Shown piece after piece: positions 2,572-8,389 of a DNA stretch of 8,389 nt. The translations under genes were made by a program, and so were the position numbers. Positions within the stretch are counted from its first letter, which is position 1. Each line of letters begins with the position of its first letter. The stretch covers positions 1 to 8,389 of the forward strand of contig JAMCTD010000053.1 of assembly GCA_023380995.1 (NCBI GenBank), read 5' to 3'. The notes below the pieces were generated by a model that searched no databases, had not been told where the DNA came from, and saw only the letters and a program-made list of their open reading frames with translations. Source of the stretch: Patescibacteria group bacterium (GTDB lineage Bacteria; Patescibacteria; Microgenomatia; Daviesbacterales; UBA10151).

Positions 2572-4110
2572 ATGAATAAGCAGATTAATATTATTATTTT
2601 TGTCATTTTATTATTTGGAATATTGTATCGTCTTTTTTTAACCTCCAACGGGAATTTCCTTTTTAATATGGATAATGCCCGGGATATGGTTGATGTAAGG
2701 GAAATGGTGATTTTGAAAAAATTGAGATTAATAGGGCCAACATCAGCAATAGAAGGTTTTTATAATGGGCCTTTTTGGTATTATCTTTTAGCAATCCCTT
2801 TTATTTTGTCAGGCGGTAATCCATACTCAGCAATTTTGATGGAAATAGGGCTTTGGACAATAGGCGGTTTCTTTCTCTTGAAATTAGTAAACAGGTGGGG
2901 GAGGTGGTTGATGTTGCCAATTGGTGCCATTTGGATTGCCTCAAATTATATAGTGCTGACAAACCTTTATGCTTTCAACCCAAATCCTGTTACGCTGTTA
3001 GCGCCGCTGTTTATATACTTATTGGTTCAATACCTAAAAGAAGAGAAAGCAATTTATATAATTTCCGCTTGGATTTTGGCAGGATTATTTTTTAATTTTG
3101 AGATGAATTTTGGTGTATTTACCCCAGCAATAATATTGACCAGTATAACTTTGACAAAAAGATATAAGCTGCTAAAACAAAAATGGTTTTGGATAGGAGT
3201 AGGTTTGTTTATTTTAACTTTACTGCCCCAAATAATTTTTGATTTTAAACACCAATTTATTATGAGCAAAGCGATTTTACGTCATTTGGCCCAAAATCCT
3301 GGCAGTGGATTAAATGTTGTAACCCGTTTCCAAGTAATTTCTGCCAGTTTCTACAATACCTTTTTACCAACCTTATTAAATCAAAAATTATATACCCAAG
3401 CAGTTTTGGCCTTGTTTATTCCAGTAATGTATTGGTTTTTTAGAAAAGGAAAAAAAGATCTCATTGTGATAGTAAGCCTGATTTTTGTTTTTACTCCTTT
3501 TGTTGGTTACTTATTCTTGCCTGTAACAGTTAATCCTTGGCATTTGGGCGGGGAAATGGCTGTATCATTAATATTAATATCTTTTTTAATAAAAAGACTT
3601 TGGCAGTCTGGAATTTTAGGTAAATTTACTTCATTAATTTTATCCATTTCAATTATATTTTTTTCACTTGGTAACATTATTAATTTTTTTGCCAAAGATT
3701 TTGGCAAAACAAATTTGGACCCATCGCTTTATAAAAACGAAATTGCTGCTATTGATTATGTTTATAAATATGCAAATGGTCAAAACTTTAAGGTTTATGT
3801 TTTCATGCCGTCTGTTTATGATTATCCTTATCAATATTTATTTTGGTGGTACGGAAAGAAGCAATATGGTTATATTCCTGCAGAGTATGCATATGCTCCA
3901 GATGAGACTTTATATATTAGCAACAAGGATAAATTTTCAGGATCAAAAGAAGATTTTAAAGGTTTGGTGTTTTTGGTTAAAGAGCCTAATAGAGGATATA
4001 ACTGGAAAAGTGGATGGGAGGGAAAGTATAAATCCATGGAGCTTTTATCTGCAGACAAAGTAGGATCAATTGAAATAGAGGTTAGAAATCAATTAAACAT
4101 TAAAAACTAA
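2572..4110 (+). CDS. GT-C/PMT-like membrane glycosyltransferase (intact paralogue)
   Basis: 512 residues from ATG to TAA. The first membrane segment is at about 5-23. The outer loop carries M-D-N-A-R-D (33-38), matching the D-Q-A-R-D of the neighbouring gene, and G-F-Y-N-G-P-F-W-Y-Y (62-71). About ten further hydrophobic segments follow up to about residue 375. The C-terminal roughly 130 residues form a soluble module with DYVYKYANGQ, YLFWWYGKKQYGY (W425-W426-Y427-G428) and KEPNRGY (E471-G475), shared with both other copies. The family transfers sugars from polyprenyl-phosphate donors outside the membrane; the role here, perhaps glycosylation of surface polymers or proteins, is inferred. It starts 43 bp from the divergent broken gene. 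Its last 18 bp overlap the 3' end of tsaE on the other strand. Confidence 0.8.
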   Translation: MNKQINIIIFVILLFGILYRLFLTSNGNFLFNMDNARDMVDVREMVILKKLRLIGPTSAIEGFYNGPFWYYLLAIPFILSGGNPYSAILMEIGLWTIGGFFLLKLVNRWGRWLMLPIGAIWIASNYIVLTNLYAFNPNPVTLLAPLFIYLLVQYLKEEKAIYIISAWILAGLFFNFEMNFGVFTPAIILTSITLTKRYKLLKQKWFWIGVGLFILTLLPQIIFDFKHQFIMSKAILRHLAQNPGSGLNVVTRFQVISASFYNTFLPTLLNQKLYTQAVLALFIPVMYWFFRKGKKDLIVIVSLIFVFTPFVGYLFLPVTVNPWHLGGEMAVSLILISFLIKRLWQSGILGKFTSLILSISIIFFSLGNIINFFAKDFGKTNLDPSLYKNEIAAIDYVYKYANGQNFKVYVFMPSVYDYPYQYLFWWYGKKQYGYIPAEYAYAPDETLYISNKDKFSGSKEDFKGLVFLVKEPNRGYNWKSGWEGKYKSMELLSADKVGSIEIEVRNQLNIKN

Positions 4111-4515
4111 GATCTTCCTTTTATTTAGTCCTTCTTTGTGGATGAAAATTTTGATAGTTCCTTTAGGTAATTTATTTATTTTTTCTGCCCACTCAATCAA
4201 AATAACGTTGTTGGGGTTTGACCATATTTCCTCAAGGCCCAACTGCCCTATATCAGTAATATTTTCTAACCTGTAGAGGTCTATGTGATAAAGAACTTTT
4301 TTTGTATTAGGGATTTGGTGTTGCCTCATTAAAACAAAAGTAGGGGAGATAATTTTATCTTTAATCTCCAATGCTTTTGCAAATCCTTGGACAAATACAG
4401 TTTTACCCGCACCAAGTTCTCCATTTAAAGCGAAGATATGGTTTTTAGTTTCTTTGGCAAGCTTCGCTGCTATTTCTTGTGTTTGTGTATCTGAATTAGA
4501 TATGTATTTTTGCAT
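4093..4515 (-). CDS. tsaE: tRNA t6A37 modification ATPase TsaE
   Basis: 140 residues, a normal length for TsaE, the P-loop protein that works with TsaB and TsaD to transfer the threonylcarbamoyl group to A37 of ANN-decoding tRNAs. Visible motifs: Walker A G-E-L-G-A-G-K-T (32-39), S-P-T-F (57-60), H-I-D-L-Y-R (77-82), and I-E-W-A-E (107-111), the acidic E-W pair typical of the family. The ATG lies inside the 3' end of the upstream lamin-tail gene (20-bp overlap), which suggests translational coupling; an AAAGAA stretch just upstream is a weak ribosome binding site. The 3' end overlaps the convergent glycosyltransferase by 18 bp, so the two transcripts must run into each other. It has no functional link to its cell-envelope neighbours, and tsaB/tsaD are not in this window. 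Confidence 0.95.
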   Translation of the reverse strand: MQKYISNSDTQTQEIAAKLAKETKNHIFALNGELGAGKTVFVQGFAKALEIKDKIISPTFVLMRQHQIPNTKKVLYHIDLYRLENITDIGQLGLEEIWSNPNNVILIEWAEKINKLPKGTIKIFIHKEGLNKRKILVFNV

Positions 4516-5701
4516 TTTTCTTTAGGTAAATATATCCTACTAAGCTTACTCCGATCAAGATCAAAATTAATCCCAGCCAAAAAAGTGGATTTATTTGTTT
4601 TTGGTCTTTGATCTCAATAGTTGTTGTTGGTTTGGTTGATGAACTTGTTCCAGCCACGGAGGCAATACGGTAGGAATCTTTTGGTAATTGGGTGGGTTTT
4701 GGAGTTGGGGATTTTAAAATTGATGGAGTAGGAGATTTTAGAAGTTCGTTTTTTAAAGTAGGGAGGGGAGACGGATTACTGGAAGTTAGGTTACTGGTAT
4801 CATTAATAATTATGATAGCTTCATTGCTCCAAGCAATAGAGTCTCCAGAAGTAAGTCTAGCTACTTTAAAAATATAATCTCCTTTTCCTTTATAATCTTT
4901 GTCATAAATATCAGGTTTTACTTCCAAATTTCCAGTCCAGTTGCCTGAAGAATTGGTTGTAATTTTAAATTGATCCAAAGTATCGTCTCCGTATTCTACC
5001 CAATTATCACCGATTTTTGTGAGTCCTAGATATCTTGTACCGTCAGCTTTTTTAAAGGCCCCTTTAAGGTAGTACTCGGTATTTTGATTATTGGGTACAG
5101 AAAGGCTGATGTTTACAGAAAATGATTGATCGGAATTTATTTGAGAAGGAATATTATTTATGGTAAATGAGGAAGAGGGTGGGGATGTAGAAATAGGGGA
5201 AGGTGTGGGTGAGAGAGCAGGAGAGGGAGTAGAAGATGGGGGAGGTGATGGTAAGTGGTTACAGTCTGTATTGCTTTTCGTTGGGTCTGTTGCATCGATT
5301 TGCCAATTGCCTCCATCAGGGATTCTGCTGAATGTTTTACCCTGAACAGTTGATGTATAAGTATAGTTATCAATTTGAGTTCCGGAGGAATTATTTAATG
5401 AAACAGTATCGCCGTTATTATTAAAAATAGCACTGCTAAATTCAAAAAAACACGACGAACTCGGGGGAATAATAACAGAAGGTAGGATATGTGCATTTAC
5501 ATTTCCGGAAGAAGTCAATTCAGTAATTGCCCATTGAGTTATATCTACATTTGATGATGAAGTATTGTAAAATTCAACCCATTCTTTATCAGAATTTGCA
5601 GGGCTTGCCATTATTTCATTTATGAGGATTGACTCGGCAAATACCGATCCAGCCCCAAAGAAGGGTAAAAGAATAACAAGAAACAGTAATATTATTCTCA
5701 C
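4496..5701 (-). CDS. Exported lamin-tail-domain protein with C-terminal membrane anchor
   Basis: 401 residues, GTG start. A GAGG lies only 2 bp upstream of the GTG, unusually close, but the signal peptide begins right after it: hydrophobic 3-18, likely cleavage after V-F-A (22). Domains in order: lamin tail domain (about 23-142) with I-L-I-N-E-I, E-W-V-E-F-Y-N, W-A-I-T and a late R-I-P-D-G-G-N-W; a Pro/Ser/Thr linker (148-178); a beta-rich domain of unknown family (about 179-300) with YYLKGAF and LTKIGDNWVEYG; a second Pro/Ser/Thr linker with two K-S-P-T-P units (303-342); and a membrane helix (about 373-393) followed by Lys-Lys. The protein is therefore probably tethered in the membrane with the domains outside. 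Bacterial lamin-tail domains occur in surface proteins and nucleases; no catalytic residues are seen here, so a structural or adhesive role is only a guess. It follows the M23 gene by 22 bp. Confidence 0.85.
   Translation of the reverse strand: MRIILLFLVILLPFFGAGSVFAESILINEIMASPANSDKEWVEFYNTSSSNVDITQWAITELTSSGNVNAHILPSVIIPPSSSCFFEFSSAIFNNNGDTVSLNNSSGTQIDNYTYTSTVQGKTFSRIPDGGNWQIDATDPTKSNTDCNHLPSPPPSSTPSPALSPTPSPISTSPPSSSFTINNIPSQINSDQSFSVNISLSVPNNQNTEYYLKGAFKKADGTRYLGLTKIGDNWVEYGDDTLDQFKITTNSSGNWTGNLEVKPDIYDKDYKGKGDYIFKVARLTSGDSIAWSNEAIIIINDTSNLTSSNPSPLPTLKNELLKSPTPSILKSPTPKPTQLPKDSYRIASVAGTSSSTKPTTTIEIKDQKQINPLFWLGLILILIGVSLVGYIYLKKNAKIHI
4676..4795 (-). repeat. Pro/Ser/Thr-rich linker 2 of lamin-tail protein
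   Basis: Encodes residues about 303-342, with repeated S-P-T-P / K-S-P-T-P units. This low-complexity spacer separates the beta-rich domain from the membrane anchor and is the kind of sequence that changes length by slippage or carries O-linked sugars. Confidence 0.5.
5168..5260 (-). repeat. Pro/Ser/Thr-rich linker 1 of lamin-tail protein
   Basis: Encodes residues about 148-178, almost only Pro, Ser and Thr in P-S-P and P-T-P units, between the lamin tail domain and the second beta-rich domain. The strand bias (purine-rich on the + strand) creates spurious open frames in the other frames here. Confidence 0.5.
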
Positions 5702-5723: not shown

Positions 5724-6914
5724 TTAGAGGATATGCCAATACAAAGTAACTATGCCATTTTGATGATCCACAATCACGCCTTTGCCCATTGATGAACCGC
5801 CAGAAATATTATAATTACATGGAGCTTGGGTAGAGTAAGCAACGCCGTTATCAGCAGCTAAAATGGGGCGTCCTACTCCTTCGTGTGATTTAGGAGCGAT
5901 ATCTAAGCCTGTATGGGCAGAAGGAAATCCAAAGACTCTATAAACTTCTCCGTATTCAGTAGTGATTACTGTGTCTCCGGGTGGATAGCCTTGCAAAGGA
6001 GAACCTAATTTACCATTCTCAAGGAGATTATGTGGGTTAATTCTATTTCCCACAATTTTTCCTCCTTCTACTTTAGCATTCTCAAATACCTCAAAATGCA
6101 AATGTGGTCCGGTTGAACAACCTGTTGAACCCATGGCTGCAATTGTTTGACCTTTAGTTACAGGTCCGATTACAGGTCCAACATTGGAGATAGCTTGAGC
6201 AATAGAATTTATTTCAGCTCTCAGTTGTGAAATTAAGGCTTGGAATTTAGCCTCATCGTTTTTGGTAACCTTTAATAGTTCATCCTTGGCTTTTTTCTGT
6301 TCATCAAGTTGTTGTTTATAAACTACTAAGTCTTTATTTAATTTTTCTGCCTCTTGTTGCCTTGTTTGTTTGTCTTGTTTTTGATCGTTGTAAGCAAATT
6401 TAGTGGCCTGCAGCTCGTATAATTTTTTCTTATCATAAGCTTGGGCAACCTGGATATATTTTAGCCTTTCGATTAAGTCAGCAAATCCGTGAGTTGAAAA
6501 AAGTAAATCTATAGTGGAAACAGCGTTACTGTATTTATATGTCTGAACGATCCTTTGAAGCAAAATTTCCGACAATCTGTCTAAGGTGATACCGATCCTT
6601 TCAATTCTTGTGGCAAGATCGTTAATTTCTCTTTTGAGTTTTTCTATTTTTAGATTTGTTTCTTCAATTTTTAAAGTAGTGACTTGAGTTTGACCATCTA
6701 TCAGATTAAGTTGGGATTTTAATGTTTTTTCCTGTTTTTGGGTATCAGCAAGTTGAGCCTCAATTTTTTCGATTTCTGCTTGTTTCTCTAAGAGTTGTTG
6801 TTGTAGGTCGTTGGTGGATTGGGCAAAGCTAGGGTATAGGGTATTGGGTATCGGATATAGAAAGACAAAAGCTGTAAAACTAAGCGCTAAAAGAGATAAT
6901 AAGATTTTTCTCAT
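5724..6914 (-). CDS. Exported coiled-coil peptidoglycan endopeptidase, M23 domain apparently permuted
   Basis: 396 residues, ATG start 9 bp after ftsX. Signal peptide about 1-31 (S-F-A/Q). Long coiled coils at about 33-120 and 155-245 flank ILLQRIVQTYKYSNAV...IDLLFSTHGFADLIERLKYIQ, which resembles the PcsB/EnvC coiled-coil region that docks on FtsX. The M23 (LytM) motifs follow in unusual order: KGQTIAAMGSTGCSTGPHLHFEV (254-276) comes first, then HTGLDIA (334-340), ILAADNGVAY, GVIVDHQNG (379-387) and LYWHIL (391-396) at the very end. In ordinary M23 enzymes the HTGLD half precedes the GPHLHFEV half. All expected ligands and catalytic residues are present (H334, D338, H394, H271, H273), so activity is plausible, unlike the degenerate LytM domain of EnvC. 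It has two cysteines only (266, 366). The place after ftsE-ftsX fits an FtsEX-gated septal hydrolase. No good ribosome binding site was seen. Confidence 0.9.
   Translation of the reverse strand: MRKILLSLLALSFTAFVFLYPIPNTLYPSFAQSTNDLQQQLLEKQAEIEKIEAQLADTQKQEKTLKSQLNLIDGQTQVTTLKIEETNLKIEKLKREINDLATRIERIGITLDRLSEILLQRIVQTYKYSNAVSTIDLLFSTHGFADLIERLKYIQVAQAYDKKKLYELQATKFAYNDQKQDKQTRQQEAEKLNKDLVVYKQQLDEQKKAKDELLKVTKNDEAKFQALISQLRAEINSIAQAISNVGPVIGPVTKGQTIAAMGSTGCSTGPHLHFEVFENAKVEGGKIVGNRINPHNLLENGKLGSPLQGYPPGDTVITTEYGEVYRVFGFPSAHTGLDIAPKSHEGVGRPILAADNGVAYSTQAPCNYNISGGSSMGKGVIVDHQNGIVTLYWHIL
6832..6859 (-). repeat. Heptanucleotide tandem repeat in M23 signal-peptide region
   Basis: On the + strand: gggtata, gggtatt, gggtatc, ggatata, i.e. 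four 7-bp units with small differences. On the coding strand this gives the Y-P-I-P-N-T-L-Y-P stretch between the hydrophobic core and the cleavage site of the M23 peptidase. The period is not a multiple of three, so gain or loss of one unit would shift the frame. Confidence 0.6.
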
Positions 6915-6923
6915 CAGATTTCA

Positions 6924-7796
6924 TTATATTTTCAAGTACCGCCTGACAGCGCTGATTGACCCTATACCTCCAATCACAATAGCTAAAATTAAGCTGGATA
7001 CCAGAACTGCCAGCATAAATAAAGGATTGACTGGTAAAAGCCTAACTTCCCCTAAGTATCCTTGCAGGAAAGGTTCAAAGTACCAAAGTACGGAGTATGA
7101 AAGAAGCCAAGCTGCAATAGTTCCTGCTACTCCATAAAAAATTCCCTCCAATATAAAAGGAGTTCTGATAAAAGCAGGGGATGCTCCCAAAAGTCTCATA
7201 ATTTCTATTTCATTCCTTTTGAGCCGTATCTTAAAACCAATAATCATCACTATTACAAGTGTGGCAAAAATCATCAAAAATCCAACAGTTACTCCGCCAA
7301 CAACCCTGATGATACCAGTAACAGAAGTTAAGGTGGATACGACATCCTCTGGAACTATAACCTCAGATACCACAGGCTCTCTTTTTAAAACCTCTGCAAC
7401 TGCTTGTAGGTCTTGGGGGTTTTGAGTAGAAATTTCAAGTGAAGCAGGAAGAATATTAGCGCTTACTAATTCCAAAAGCGCAGGATCGTTTTTATTCCTG
7501 TCCCGGTATATTTGTAATGCTTCATCTTTGGAAACAAATTTTGTTTTGGTTACTTTAGTATCCTGATGCAGCGCGTTTTCTATCGCTGATACATCCTGAC
7601 TGGTAGTTCCTTCTTTAAAGAAGGCGATTACTTGAGGTTTGCTTTCAAAATAACGTAAAGTAGTTTGTGACCCTGCTGCCAAAATTATAAAAGTCTGAAG
7701 CGCCAGAAAAGTTAAGAACATTACCATAAAGGCAGCAATCGCCTGAAATGGTGTGCGCCTGATATTCCGTTTTGTAAACTCAAATGCTCTGTTCAT
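6924..7796 (-). CDS. ftsX: Cell division ABC transporter permease FtsX
   Basis: 290 residues, ATG start 3 bp after the ftsE stop, so almost certainly cotranscribed and coupled. FtsX pairs with the ATPase FtsE and transmits its cycle to a peptidoglycan hydrolase outside the cell. Layout is as in the family: short cytoplasmic N-terminus, TM1 about 18-42, an extracellular domain about 43-158 (with KFVSKDEALQIY and ILPASLEI, typical FtsX stretches), then TM2 about 161-189, TM3 about 211-238 and TM4 about 257-281. The cytoplasmic loop I-R-L-K-R-N-E-I-E-I-M-R-L-L-G-A-S (190-206) is the FtsX/MacB signature that contacts the ATPase. Length is normal and nothing is missing. The peptidase gene 9 bp downstream encodes the likely partner of the extracellular domain. 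Confidence 0.96.
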   Translation of the reverse strand: MNRAFEFTKRNIRRTPFQAIAAFMVMFLTFLALQTFIILAAGSQTTLRYFESKPQVIAFFKEGTTSQDVSAIENALHQDTKVTKTKFVSKDEALQIYRDRNKNDPALLELVSANILPASLEISTQNPQDLQAVAEVLKREPVVSEVIVPEDVVSTLTSVTGIIRVVGGVTVGFLMIFATLVIVMIIGFKIRLKRNEIEIMRLLGASPAFIRTPFILEGIFYGVAGTIAAWLLSYSVLWYFEPFLQGYLGEVRLLPVNPLFMLAVLVSSLILAIVIGGIGSISAVRRYLKI

Positions 7797-7799
7797 ATG

Positions 7800-8389
7800 T
7801 TATGACTTTAAGTCATATTTACCCTCTTTAGTATCACTGGTTATTTTACCTTTTTTAAGGATTACAACCCTTCTTTTTAAGGTATTAACAATTTCCTGGT
7901 TGTGGGTGGCCATTAAAATTGTGGTACCCCATGAATTTATTTCATTTAGCAGCTGAATTACTCCCCAGGCAGTTTTGGGATCCAAATCTCCTGTTGGTTC
8001 ATCTGCTAATACCAAATCAGGTTTGCCAACAATTGCCCTGGCAATAGCAGTTCTTTGGGCTTCTCCCCCAGAAAGCTGTTTCGGAAAGAGGTTTCTTTTG
8101 TCCCAAATTTCCACGAGCTTTAAGGTATGCTCAACCATTTTAGAAATTTCTTCATCTGTTTTGTCTTGCACCTCTAATGTTAAAGCCACATTTTCAAAAA
8201 CAGTTCTGTCATCCAGTAATTTAAAATCCTGAAAAACTACACCAACTTTTCTTCTGAAGTGAGGTACGTCACGATTTTTGATTTTAGTGATATCTATATT
8301 GCCAAGCATAATTTTGCCGCTTGTTGGTAAAATCTCCCGGGTTAAAATACGCAGTAGCGTAGATTTACCCGCACCAGATGGGCCTACGA
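7800..8389 (-). CDS. ftsE: Cell division ATP-binding protein FtsE, 5' end beyond window
   Basis: The frame stays open to the right edge, about 196 residues visible; only the first 30 or so residues of a normal FtsE are lacking. The internal ATG at 8307-8309 is not the start, because codons upstream encode the Walker A motif G-P-S-G-A-G-K-S-T immediately inside the edge. Other ABC ATPase motifs follow in order: Q-loop (V-V-F-Q-D-F-K-L-L), signature L-S-G-G-E-A-Q-R, Walker B (L-V-L-A-D-E-P-T-G-D-L-D) and the switch histidine in M-A-T-H-N. The A-D-E-P-T-G-D-L-D and M-A-T-H-N stretches together with the adjacent ftsX identify FtsE rather than a generic LolD/MacB ATPase. It energises the FtsX complex at the division site, on the cytoplasmic face. 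Confidence 0.95.
   Translation of the reverse strand, partial: VGPSGAGKSTLLRILTREILPTSGKIMLGNIDITKIKNRDVPHFRRKVGVVFQDFKLLDDRTVFENVALTLEVQDKTDEEISKMVEHTLKLVEIWDKRNLFPKQLSGGEAQRTAIARAIVGKPDLVLADEPTGDLDPKTAWGVIQLLNEINSWGTTILMATHNQEIVNTLKRRVVILKKGKITSDTKEGKYDLKS

What the first reader, a model, noticed from the sequence alone, without database searches (positions are those of the whole stretch)
5724..6170. M23/LytM peptidase domain with its two halves in swapped order
Seen: on the - strand the motif KGQ..AAMGSTGCSTGPHLHFEV (residues 254-276, HLH at 6096-6104) precedes HTGLD (334-338, 5901-5915), VDHQNG and the terminal LYWH (H394, 5733-5735), all in one uninterrupted frame. Established: in LytM-type M23 enzymes the order is HxxxD, then VIDHGNG/LYxH, then GxTGxSTGPHLHFE. 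The natural N- and C-termini of the M23 fold lie near each other, so a circular permutation could fold. The new junction (about 295-333: NPHNLLENGKLGSPLQGYPPGD...) reads like the usual M23 C-terminal tail joined to the usual N-terminal strand. The coiled coil now enters at the strand after YxH rather than before HxxxD, which would change how FtsEX or the coiled coil gates the active site. I have a vague memory of similar order in other CPR proteins, so it may be a lineage trait rather than unique.
Basis: partly seen in the sequence, partly recalled or inferred. Interest (0 to 1): 0.72.

Follow-up and report, generated by a model that had tools for sequence, protein, structure and literature searches.

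The report
Circularly permuted cell-wall endopeptidase beside FtsEX
In a group of tiny uncultured bacteria, a predicted wall-cutting enzyme encoded beside the FtsEX cell-division complex has the two halves of its M23 peptidase domain in swapped order, so its long coiled-coil arm joins the domain at a different place than in E. coli EnvC.

Summary
The 396-residue gene (window 5724-6914, minus strand), directly after ftsE-ftsX, encodes a coiled coil and an M23 peptidase with its halves swapped: GSTGCSTGPHLHF first, HTGLD and LYWH last. It is not a misassembly: the 119 best homologues listed besides the window's own protein have the same order. Rejoining the halves in the usual order turns two half-matches to canonical M23 into one (median 39.7 to 80.9 bits, higher in 96 of 97). 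By hand count, at least 73 of 286 sampled genomes of the Patescibacteria centre's phylum carry it; none was seen in 151 Chloroflexota-centred or 149 Bacilli-titled-centred genomes at E<=1e-10. Of 84 permuted genes found without reference to ftsX, 72 lie directly after it. In a quick FtsX tree, 25 of 29 permuted rows fall in one starred set that holds no canonical neighbour. Catalytic residues are kept, so I read it as an active FtsEX-driven endopeptidase with the coiled coil attached to the HxH half. The tertiary fold, FtsX binding and activity are not shown; one origin of the permutation is possible but not established.

The parts
5724..6914 (-). CDS, 396 aa: signal-like N-terminus (by eye), coiled coil, circularly permuted M23 peptidase; stop TAA at 5724-5726
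6186..6812 (-). Coiled coil, residues 35-243 (helices 35-129 and 145-243 in the model); the full-length model's best PDB match is the Vibrio FtsE/FtsX/EnvC entry, chain E
   Evidence: CC_PcsB match below its cut-off
6018..6182 (-). Canonical C-terminal half of M23, here first: residues 245-299, strand GPVTKGQTIAAMG, STG loop (loop 3 by homology), HLHFEV, NPHNLL
6096..6104 (-). HLH 271-273: first His catalytic, second His zinc ligand by homology
   Evidence: H271 410 of 410, H273 409 of 410
5967..6032 (-). New junction, residues 295-316, joining the usual C-terminus to the usual N-terminus
5727..6017 (-). Canonical N-terminal half of M23, here last: residues 300-396
5901..5915 (-). HTGLD 334-338 (HxxxD zinc ligands H334 and D338 by homology)
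5733..5744 (-). LYWH 391-394; H394 catalytic by homology, two residues before the C-terminus
   Evidence: H394 410 of 410; distance of two residues in 297 of 313 listed permuted proteins and 71 of 97 permuted loci
6117..6119 (-). C266, invariant among the 118 close homologues aligned; candidate disulfide partner of C366
5817..5819 (-). C366, invariant among the 118 close homologues aligned; candidate disulfide partner of C266
6924..7796 (-). ftsX (PF18075 extracellular domain and PF02687)
7800..8387 (-). ftsE, cut by the window edge
   Evidence: TIGR02673, E 1.6e-70, below its curated cut-off because cut

Best explanation
It is a circularly permuted, catalytically complete M23 (LytM-type) endopeptidase that works as the FtsEX-coupled wall hydrolase of Daviesbacteria, Woykebacteria, WWE3, WS6 and related Patescibacteria. 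Shown from sequence: swapped order, shared cut point, ftsX neighbourhood, conserved catalytic residues, coiled-coil N-terminus, a C-terminus that usually lies two residues after the catalytic His. Inferred: FtsX grips the coiled coil; the ATP cycle of FtsE moves it; and because the helix now runs directly into the strand before the STG loop and HxH, that motion acts on the HxH/loop-3 wall of the groove instead of arriving ahead of HxxxD as in EnvC. The catalytic YxH strand has become the end of the chain, and its short length suggests that long extensions there are selected against.
For: Order in 120 of 120 (window's own protein included), 120 of 120 and 73 of 107 listed proteins. Un-permuting raises the canonical-M23 score from a median 39.7 to 80.9 bits and the span from 46 to 118 of 141 columns, higher in 96 of 97; best rotation near the junction in 95 of 97. 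Pfam: native window domain two stretches, 60.3 bits; rejoined one stretch 2-91 of 96, 66.7 bits. H271, H273, D338 and H394 together in 381 of 410 aligned sequences (395 different). ftsX directly upstream in 72 of 84 permuted genes found by M23 searches, and in 12 of 13 found from ftsX. Full-length model: best PDB match 8tzl_E (Vibrio FtsE/FtsX/EnvC), E 1.1e-5. Domain model pLDDT 81.6, pTM 0.78.
Against: The M23 tertiary fold is not confirmed: fold comparison with the domain model was inconclusive (told under Tried and rejected), and the full-length match to 8tzl_E has TM-scores of only 0.41 and 0.46 and an rmsd of 26 A, with unrelated Stat5a chains at ranks 2 and 4-7, so it rests mainly on the coiled coil. 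The first un-permutation test, with the coiled-coil helix left between the halves, showed no gain (39.5 against 40.0 bits, higher in 41 of 97); trimming the helix was needed. The permuted domain also occurs far from ftsX (L306, 129 kb away on one contig; L304, L305, L312 on other contigs than ftsX). In the more diverse loci the C-terminal distance is two residues in 71 of 97 and up to 21. No activity or FtsX binding was measured.
Confidence: 0.82

Rival explanations
1. The two halves do not close within one chain: they complete the M23 fold between two protomers, so the active enzyme is a segment-swapped dimer held by FtsEX.
For: The EnvC-FtsX periplasmic complex is 1 to 2 (PMC7668044 abstract passage), so an FtsEX unit offers two FtsX; the single-chain fold is unconfirmed.
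Against: By my reading the junction joins the usual M23 C-terminal tail to the usual N-terminal strand over a moderate length, and the single-chain model is confident in its core strands.
Confidence: 0.1
2. Several independent permutations of M23 occurred in Patescibacteria at the same cut point rather than one.
For: With the junction columns left out, the M23 tree needs 4 changes of order, and 0 percent of 200 bootstrap trees need only one (5-95 percent range 2-4); 4 of 29 permuted rows lie outside the main FtsX set; the HxxxD half varies in form in WS6-type proteins.
Against: With junction columns the tree needs 1 change, support 71. Without them one clade is not rejected (AU p 0.406), starred branches force only one change, and shuffled labels need about 29. 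The cut point is shared.
Confidence: 0.35
3. It is a pseudo-enzyme like EnvC that only activates amidases.
For: Same kind of architecture and gene neighbourhood as EnvC, whose LytM domain lacks catalytic residues (PMC7668044 passage).
Against: Zinc ligands and both catalytic His positions are kept (H271 410, H273 409, H394 410, D338 382 of 410).
Confidence: 0.06
4. Assembly or frame artefact.
For: Only the single window was seen at first.
Against: Same order and similar length in many independent contigs.
Confidence: 0.01

Closest known systems
EnvC (FtsEX-EnvC-AmiA/B, E. coli and Vibrio)
   Same: Coiled coil followed by an M23-family domain, coupled to FtsEX; the model's best PDB match is chain E of the Vibrio FtsE/FtsX/EnvC entry
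   Different: EnvC reaches its LytM domain through a restraining arm and lacks catalytic residues (PMC7668044 passages), with the normal order (recalled); here the order is permuted and the catalytic residues are present
PcsB, CwlO, RipC (FtsEX-coupled hydrolases)
   Same: Coiled coil plus a hydrolase domain that works directly with FtsEX (PMC7668044 passage)
   Different: Their catalytic domain is CHAP (PcsB, same passage) or NlpC/P60 (CwlO, RipC; recalled), not M23
LytM, lysostaphin and EnpA (canonical M23)
   Same: HxxxD, YxH and HxH motifs and the STG loop; by homology the same zinc site
   Different: Order of the halves; the normal layout and loops are described in PMC8269130 (passages)
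Circularly permuted NlpC/P60 domains (YaeF/G6R and LRAT-like)
   Same: Swapped order of catalytic residues in a family that includes cell-wall hydrolases (PMC6403190 passage)
   Different: Papain-like cysteine fold (recalled), unrelated to M23

Membership tests
M23 peptidase (PF01551) | Profile match above the curated cut-off | tested here: met
   56 bits against 28.7, in two swapped stretches; rejoined 66.7 bits in one stretch
M23 peptidase (PF01551) | HxxxD, YxH and HxH residues present | tested here: met
M23 peptidase (PF01551) | Motif order HxxxD then YxH then HxH | tested here: not met
   Order is HxH, HxxxD, YxH; hence a permuted variant, not a canonical member
M23 peptidase (PF01551) | M23 tertiary fold | tested here: inconclusive
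   Strand set as expected by my reading; fold comparisons inconclusive
M23 peptidase (PF01551) | Zinc-dependent endopeptidase activity | not testable with these tools
   needs biochemistry
FtsEX-coupled hydrolase or activator (EnvC/PcsB/CwlO/RipC type) | Gene next to ftsEX | tested here: met
   window; elsewhere 72 of 84 M23-anchored permuted genes directly after ftsX
FtsEX-coupled hydrolase or activator (EnvC/PcsB/CwlO/RipC type) | N-terminal coiled coil ahead of the catalytic domain | tested here: met
FtsEX-coupled hydrolase or activator (EnvC/PcsB/CwlO/RipC type) | Physical binding to the FtsX extracellular domain | not testable with these tools
   no complex prediction available here
EnvC proper | Degenerate LytM active site that activates amidases | tested here: not met
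   catalytic residues present
EnvC proper | NCBIfam EnvC equivalog cut-off | tested here: not met
   NF008644 26.5 bits against 270

The most novel reading that the evidence does not exclude
A single ancient circular permutation of M23 in Patescibacteria rewired FtsEX control: the coiled coil became fused to the HxH/loop-3 half, the YxH catalytic strand became a short free C-terminus, and the permuted form was then kept as the FtsEX partner of a major clade (Microgenomates, WWE3, WS6 and kin), making it both a rare-event marker for that clade and a natural experiment on how FtsEX gates a hydrolase.
Probability: 0.4. Interest if true: 0.75.

Novelty: new variant of a known kind. Interest (0 to 1): 0.64.

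Why it matters
I recall no natural circular permutant of M23, and the open-access papers I could search name none in the listings and passages I saw (the M23 review PMC9662197 holds no word beginning with permut). The variant is spread over many Patescibacteria and sits at the division machine, so it would test whether FtsEX needs its coiled coil attached at one particular edge of the hydrolase. It offers a rare-event character for testing branching within Patescibacteria. It also matters for annotation: InterPro is reported to define the M23 domain from Hx3D to HxH (PMC9662197 passage), and Pfam reads the window's protein as two stretches.

Tried and rejected

Loop hypothesis: I first thought the cut removes a groove-wall loop. 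The EnpA paper places loop 3 just before the HxH His and names no groove loop directly after the YxH His (PMC8269130 passages), so I dropped it.

Disulfide C266-C366: both Cys were present by eye in 36 of 36 first loci, but C266 is only 218 of 410 overall. Where C266 is present, a Cys lies in the C366 segment in 208 of 218, but also in 166 of 192 without C266. A staple is plausible in the window's subfamily, not general.

Strictly fixed C-terminus: two residues after YxH in 297 of 313 listed proteins, which come largely from a few subfamilies; in 97 more diverse loci it is 71, with 22 at 0 to 6 other than 2 and 4 at 15 or 21. I weakened the claim accordingly.

Misassembly, chance motifs and an EnvC-like pseudo-enzyme were rejected.

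Canonical ancestor: no canonical form close to the permuted set was identified; the M23 trees have few columns.

No whole genome is held for the window.

Odds changed for that: best explanation 0.83 to 0.82, several origins 0.30 to 0.35, novel case 0.45 to 0.40.

Full report
What is in the window. On the minus strand the order is ftsE (7800-8387, cut by the edge), ftsX (6924-7796), the 396-aa gene of the finding (5724-6914), a lamin-tail-domain protein (4496-5701) and tsaE (4093-4515). The frame is open throughout and ends in TAA right after LYWHIL.

Is the swapped order real? Pfam M23 matches the protein in two stretches, the best being profile positions 63-91 of 96 at residues 252-280. A search with residues 225-396 gave 2286 proteins at E <= 0.001 among 3104 candidates; 120 are listed, one of them the window's own, the other 119 covering the whole region at 75-88 percent identity; all 120 have HxH before HxxxD. 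Two further searches with distant alignments listed 120 and 107 proteins: 120 and 73 were permuted by script; of the other 34 in the second set 27 were canonical, 5 split by the script but permuted by eye, 2 without a match. So it is no assembly error.

Un-permutation test. I collected 97 permuted and 26 canonical M23 proteins from the loci held at that point, identical copies removed, and built a profile of the canonical ones. A first test left the coiled-coil helix between the rejoined halves and showed nothing (median 39.5 native, 40.0 rejoined, higher in 41 of 97). With the helix trimmed, the median best single match rose from 39.7 to 80.9 bits and the span from 46 to 118 of 141 columns; it was higher in 96 of 97. 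Of the rotations tried (every third residue), the best lay within 25 residues of the predicted junction in 95 of 97; random rotations elsewhere had a median of 59.1 bits, and canonical proteins in their own order 153.85. With Pfam's own model the window domain goes from two stretches (60.3 bits) to one stretch 2-91 of 96 (66.7 bits).

Structure. Full-length model: pLDDT 77.3, pTM 0.46, two long helices (35-129, 145-243) and then strands. Domain model: pLDDT 81.6, pTM 0.78, strands where I expect M23 strands in permuted order (the expectation is recalled). The fold comparisons of the domain were inconclusive (see Tried and rejected). With the full-length model Foldseek ranks chain E of the Vibrio FtsE/FtsX/EnvC entry first (8tzl_E, E 1.1e-5, TM 0.41 and 0.46, rmsd 26 A) and E. 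coli EnvC third (6tpi_A, 1.6e-4); unrelated Stat5a chains take ranks 2 and 4-7; RipA N-terminal (6ewy, 0.016) and PcsB (4cgk, 0.020) follow among unrelated coiled coils. This speaks for the coiled coil, not for the M23 fold.

How far does it reach? Genome contigs gave 39 loci, 17 of them relatives over most of the query (L001-L017), with record titles Daviesbacteria, Woykebacteria, WS6, Microgenomates group, Patescibacteria group, one bacterium and one Deltaproteobacteria (L012, 71 percent identical to the window over residues 10-353, perhaps a binning error); L015 lacks part of the HxH half. Homologues named by their sources add WWE3, Dojkabacteria and one Doudnabacteria protein (P0241; another Doudnabacteria protein, P0342, is canonical). 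In the class of G001, 183 of 187 genomes had some match, halves included, and the 30 best loci returned all span both halves in permuted order. In the class of the WS6 genome 49 of 57 had some match. In the phylum sample 103 of 286 had a match at E <= 1e-12; by my hand count of the listing, 73 of 286 had one match running from model position 30 or lower to 157 or higher of 159, that is, permuted; a lower bound. Outgroups: no spanning match in 6 genomes; none among the matches listed for 151 genomes of the Chloroflexota centre's phylum at E <= 1e-10 (42 had half matches; in many of these genomes only the first 24 candidates were scored); none for 149 of the phylum of a MAG titled Bacilli (3 had half matches). 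No other phyla were searched. The seven CPR genomes searched for PF01551 each hold at least one near-full-length match in canonical order as well.

Survey anchored on FtsX. FtsX was found in 269 of 286 phylum genomes. I fetched 80 regions, two of every three of the first 119 listed rows; the rows are ordered by FtsX score, so this is not a random sample. In the fetched stretch there is a permuted M23 in 26 of 80 (25 next to ftsX, L221 cut by the contig end; L176 about 2 kb on), a canonical M23 in 7 (next to ftsX in L147, L195 and, after 0.3 kb, L200; further on in L149, L153, L166, L185), and neither in 47, contig ends included. Of ten of these 47 that I chose for a coiled-coil-like neighbour, four matched CHAP (L164 below the cut-off), four C39-type peptidases, and two neither. 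In a quick FtsX tree of 83 rows, 25 of 29 permuted rows fall in one starred set of 31 (SH-aLRT 100); the other six are five with a different neighbour and one cut by the contig end; none is canonical. The label needs 11 changes against a shuffled mean of 24.1. So the permuted enzyme looks ancestral to that set, sometimes replaced, with four cases elsewhere (L176, L183, L194, L218). Of the 97 permuted loci, 84 were found through the M23 domain: ftsX directly upstream in 72, no room in 2, no hit in 10; 13 came from the ftsX survey: 12 and 1. In ten further loci, fetched because they looked less typical, permuted forms stand far from ftsX in L306 (129 kb) and on other contigs than the ftsX hit in L304, L305 and L312; in L307 ftsX lies about 2 kb upstream, outside the stretch.

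One origin? A tree of 60 rejoined permuted and 36 canonical domains separates them by one branch, support 71. Without the columns around the cut sites it needs 4 changes; none of 200 bootstrap trees needs only one (range 2-4); one clade is not rejected (AU p 0.406) and shuffled labels need about 29. One or a few origins: open.

Working parts. In 410 permuted sequences (395 different; the window's included) H271 is kept in 410, H273 in 409, H394 in 410 and D338 in 382 (some misses are alignment slips near inserts); all four in 381; with H334 332. Of the 77 without H334 in place, 73 come from the WS6-type listings, where that region has variant forms such as HRGWSGGAPYAVD. The chain ends exactly two residues after the last YxH in 297 of 313 listed permuted proteins and in 71 of 97 loci, with up to 21 in the rest.

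Mechanism. In EnvC the coiled coil leads through a restraining arm to the LytM domain and FtsEX is thought to release that arm; the authors predict a similar mechanism for PcsB, CwlO and RipC (PMC7668044, passages read). [quoted passage not shown] In the permuted enzyme the coiled-coil helix ends at the strands just before loop 3 and HxH, while HxxxD follows across the new junction and the YxH strand is the chain's end. My best reading is that FtsEX pulls or turns the HxH/loop-3 side and so opens or aligns the groove. Order, neighbourhood and residues are shown; binding, movement and activity are inferred.

Prior art. Searches: circular permutation + M23 + peptidase (2 papers, listing only; not about this by title and abstract start), FtsEX + Patescibacteria + peptidoglycan (0), FtsEX + EnvC + LytM (24, 15 listed), circularly permuted + LytM (1: PMC6403190, whose passage concerns NlpC/P60), Candidate Phyla Radiation + FtsX (8, listing only), M23 + LytM + lysostaphin + loop + groove + LytU (11, 10 listed), Microgenomates + peptidoglycan hydrolase + cell division (0), circular permutation + Patescibacteria (2, listing only). 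The library lacks most subscription papers and bioRxiv preprints, so a description elsewhere is possible.

Noticed in passing
L150, L159, L175, L182 (downstream of ftsX): Proteins next to ftsX with a C39-type cysteine peptidase domain (PF13529 above cut-off in all four; CC_PcsB coiled-coil match in L150 and L175), apparently taking the place of the M23 or CHAP partner of FtsEX in several Patescibacteria.
   Followed up: partly
L130, L133: A permuted M23 gene after ftsX followed in tandem by a 412-residue open frame with canonical M23 order: possible relic of the duplication behind the permutation.
   Followed up: partly
L304, L305, L306, L312: Permuted M23 proteins of 363 to 404 residues standing away from ftsX.
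   Followed up: partly
L015 5908-7020: A Daviesbacteria copy lacks the segment from CSTGPHLHFEV to the junction; deletion or local misassembly.
   Followed up: no
1002-2528: Two minus-strand ORFs (1002-1535 and 1566-2528) look by eye like one membrane protein gene interrupted near 1536-1565; the ORF at 1-996 on the plus strand resembles it.
   Followed up: no
4496-5701: Lamin-tail-domain protein with a C-terminal membrane-helix-like end directly after the hydrolase gene; a similar protein follows the permuted M23 in WS6 by eye (L017 7177-7944).
   Followed up: no
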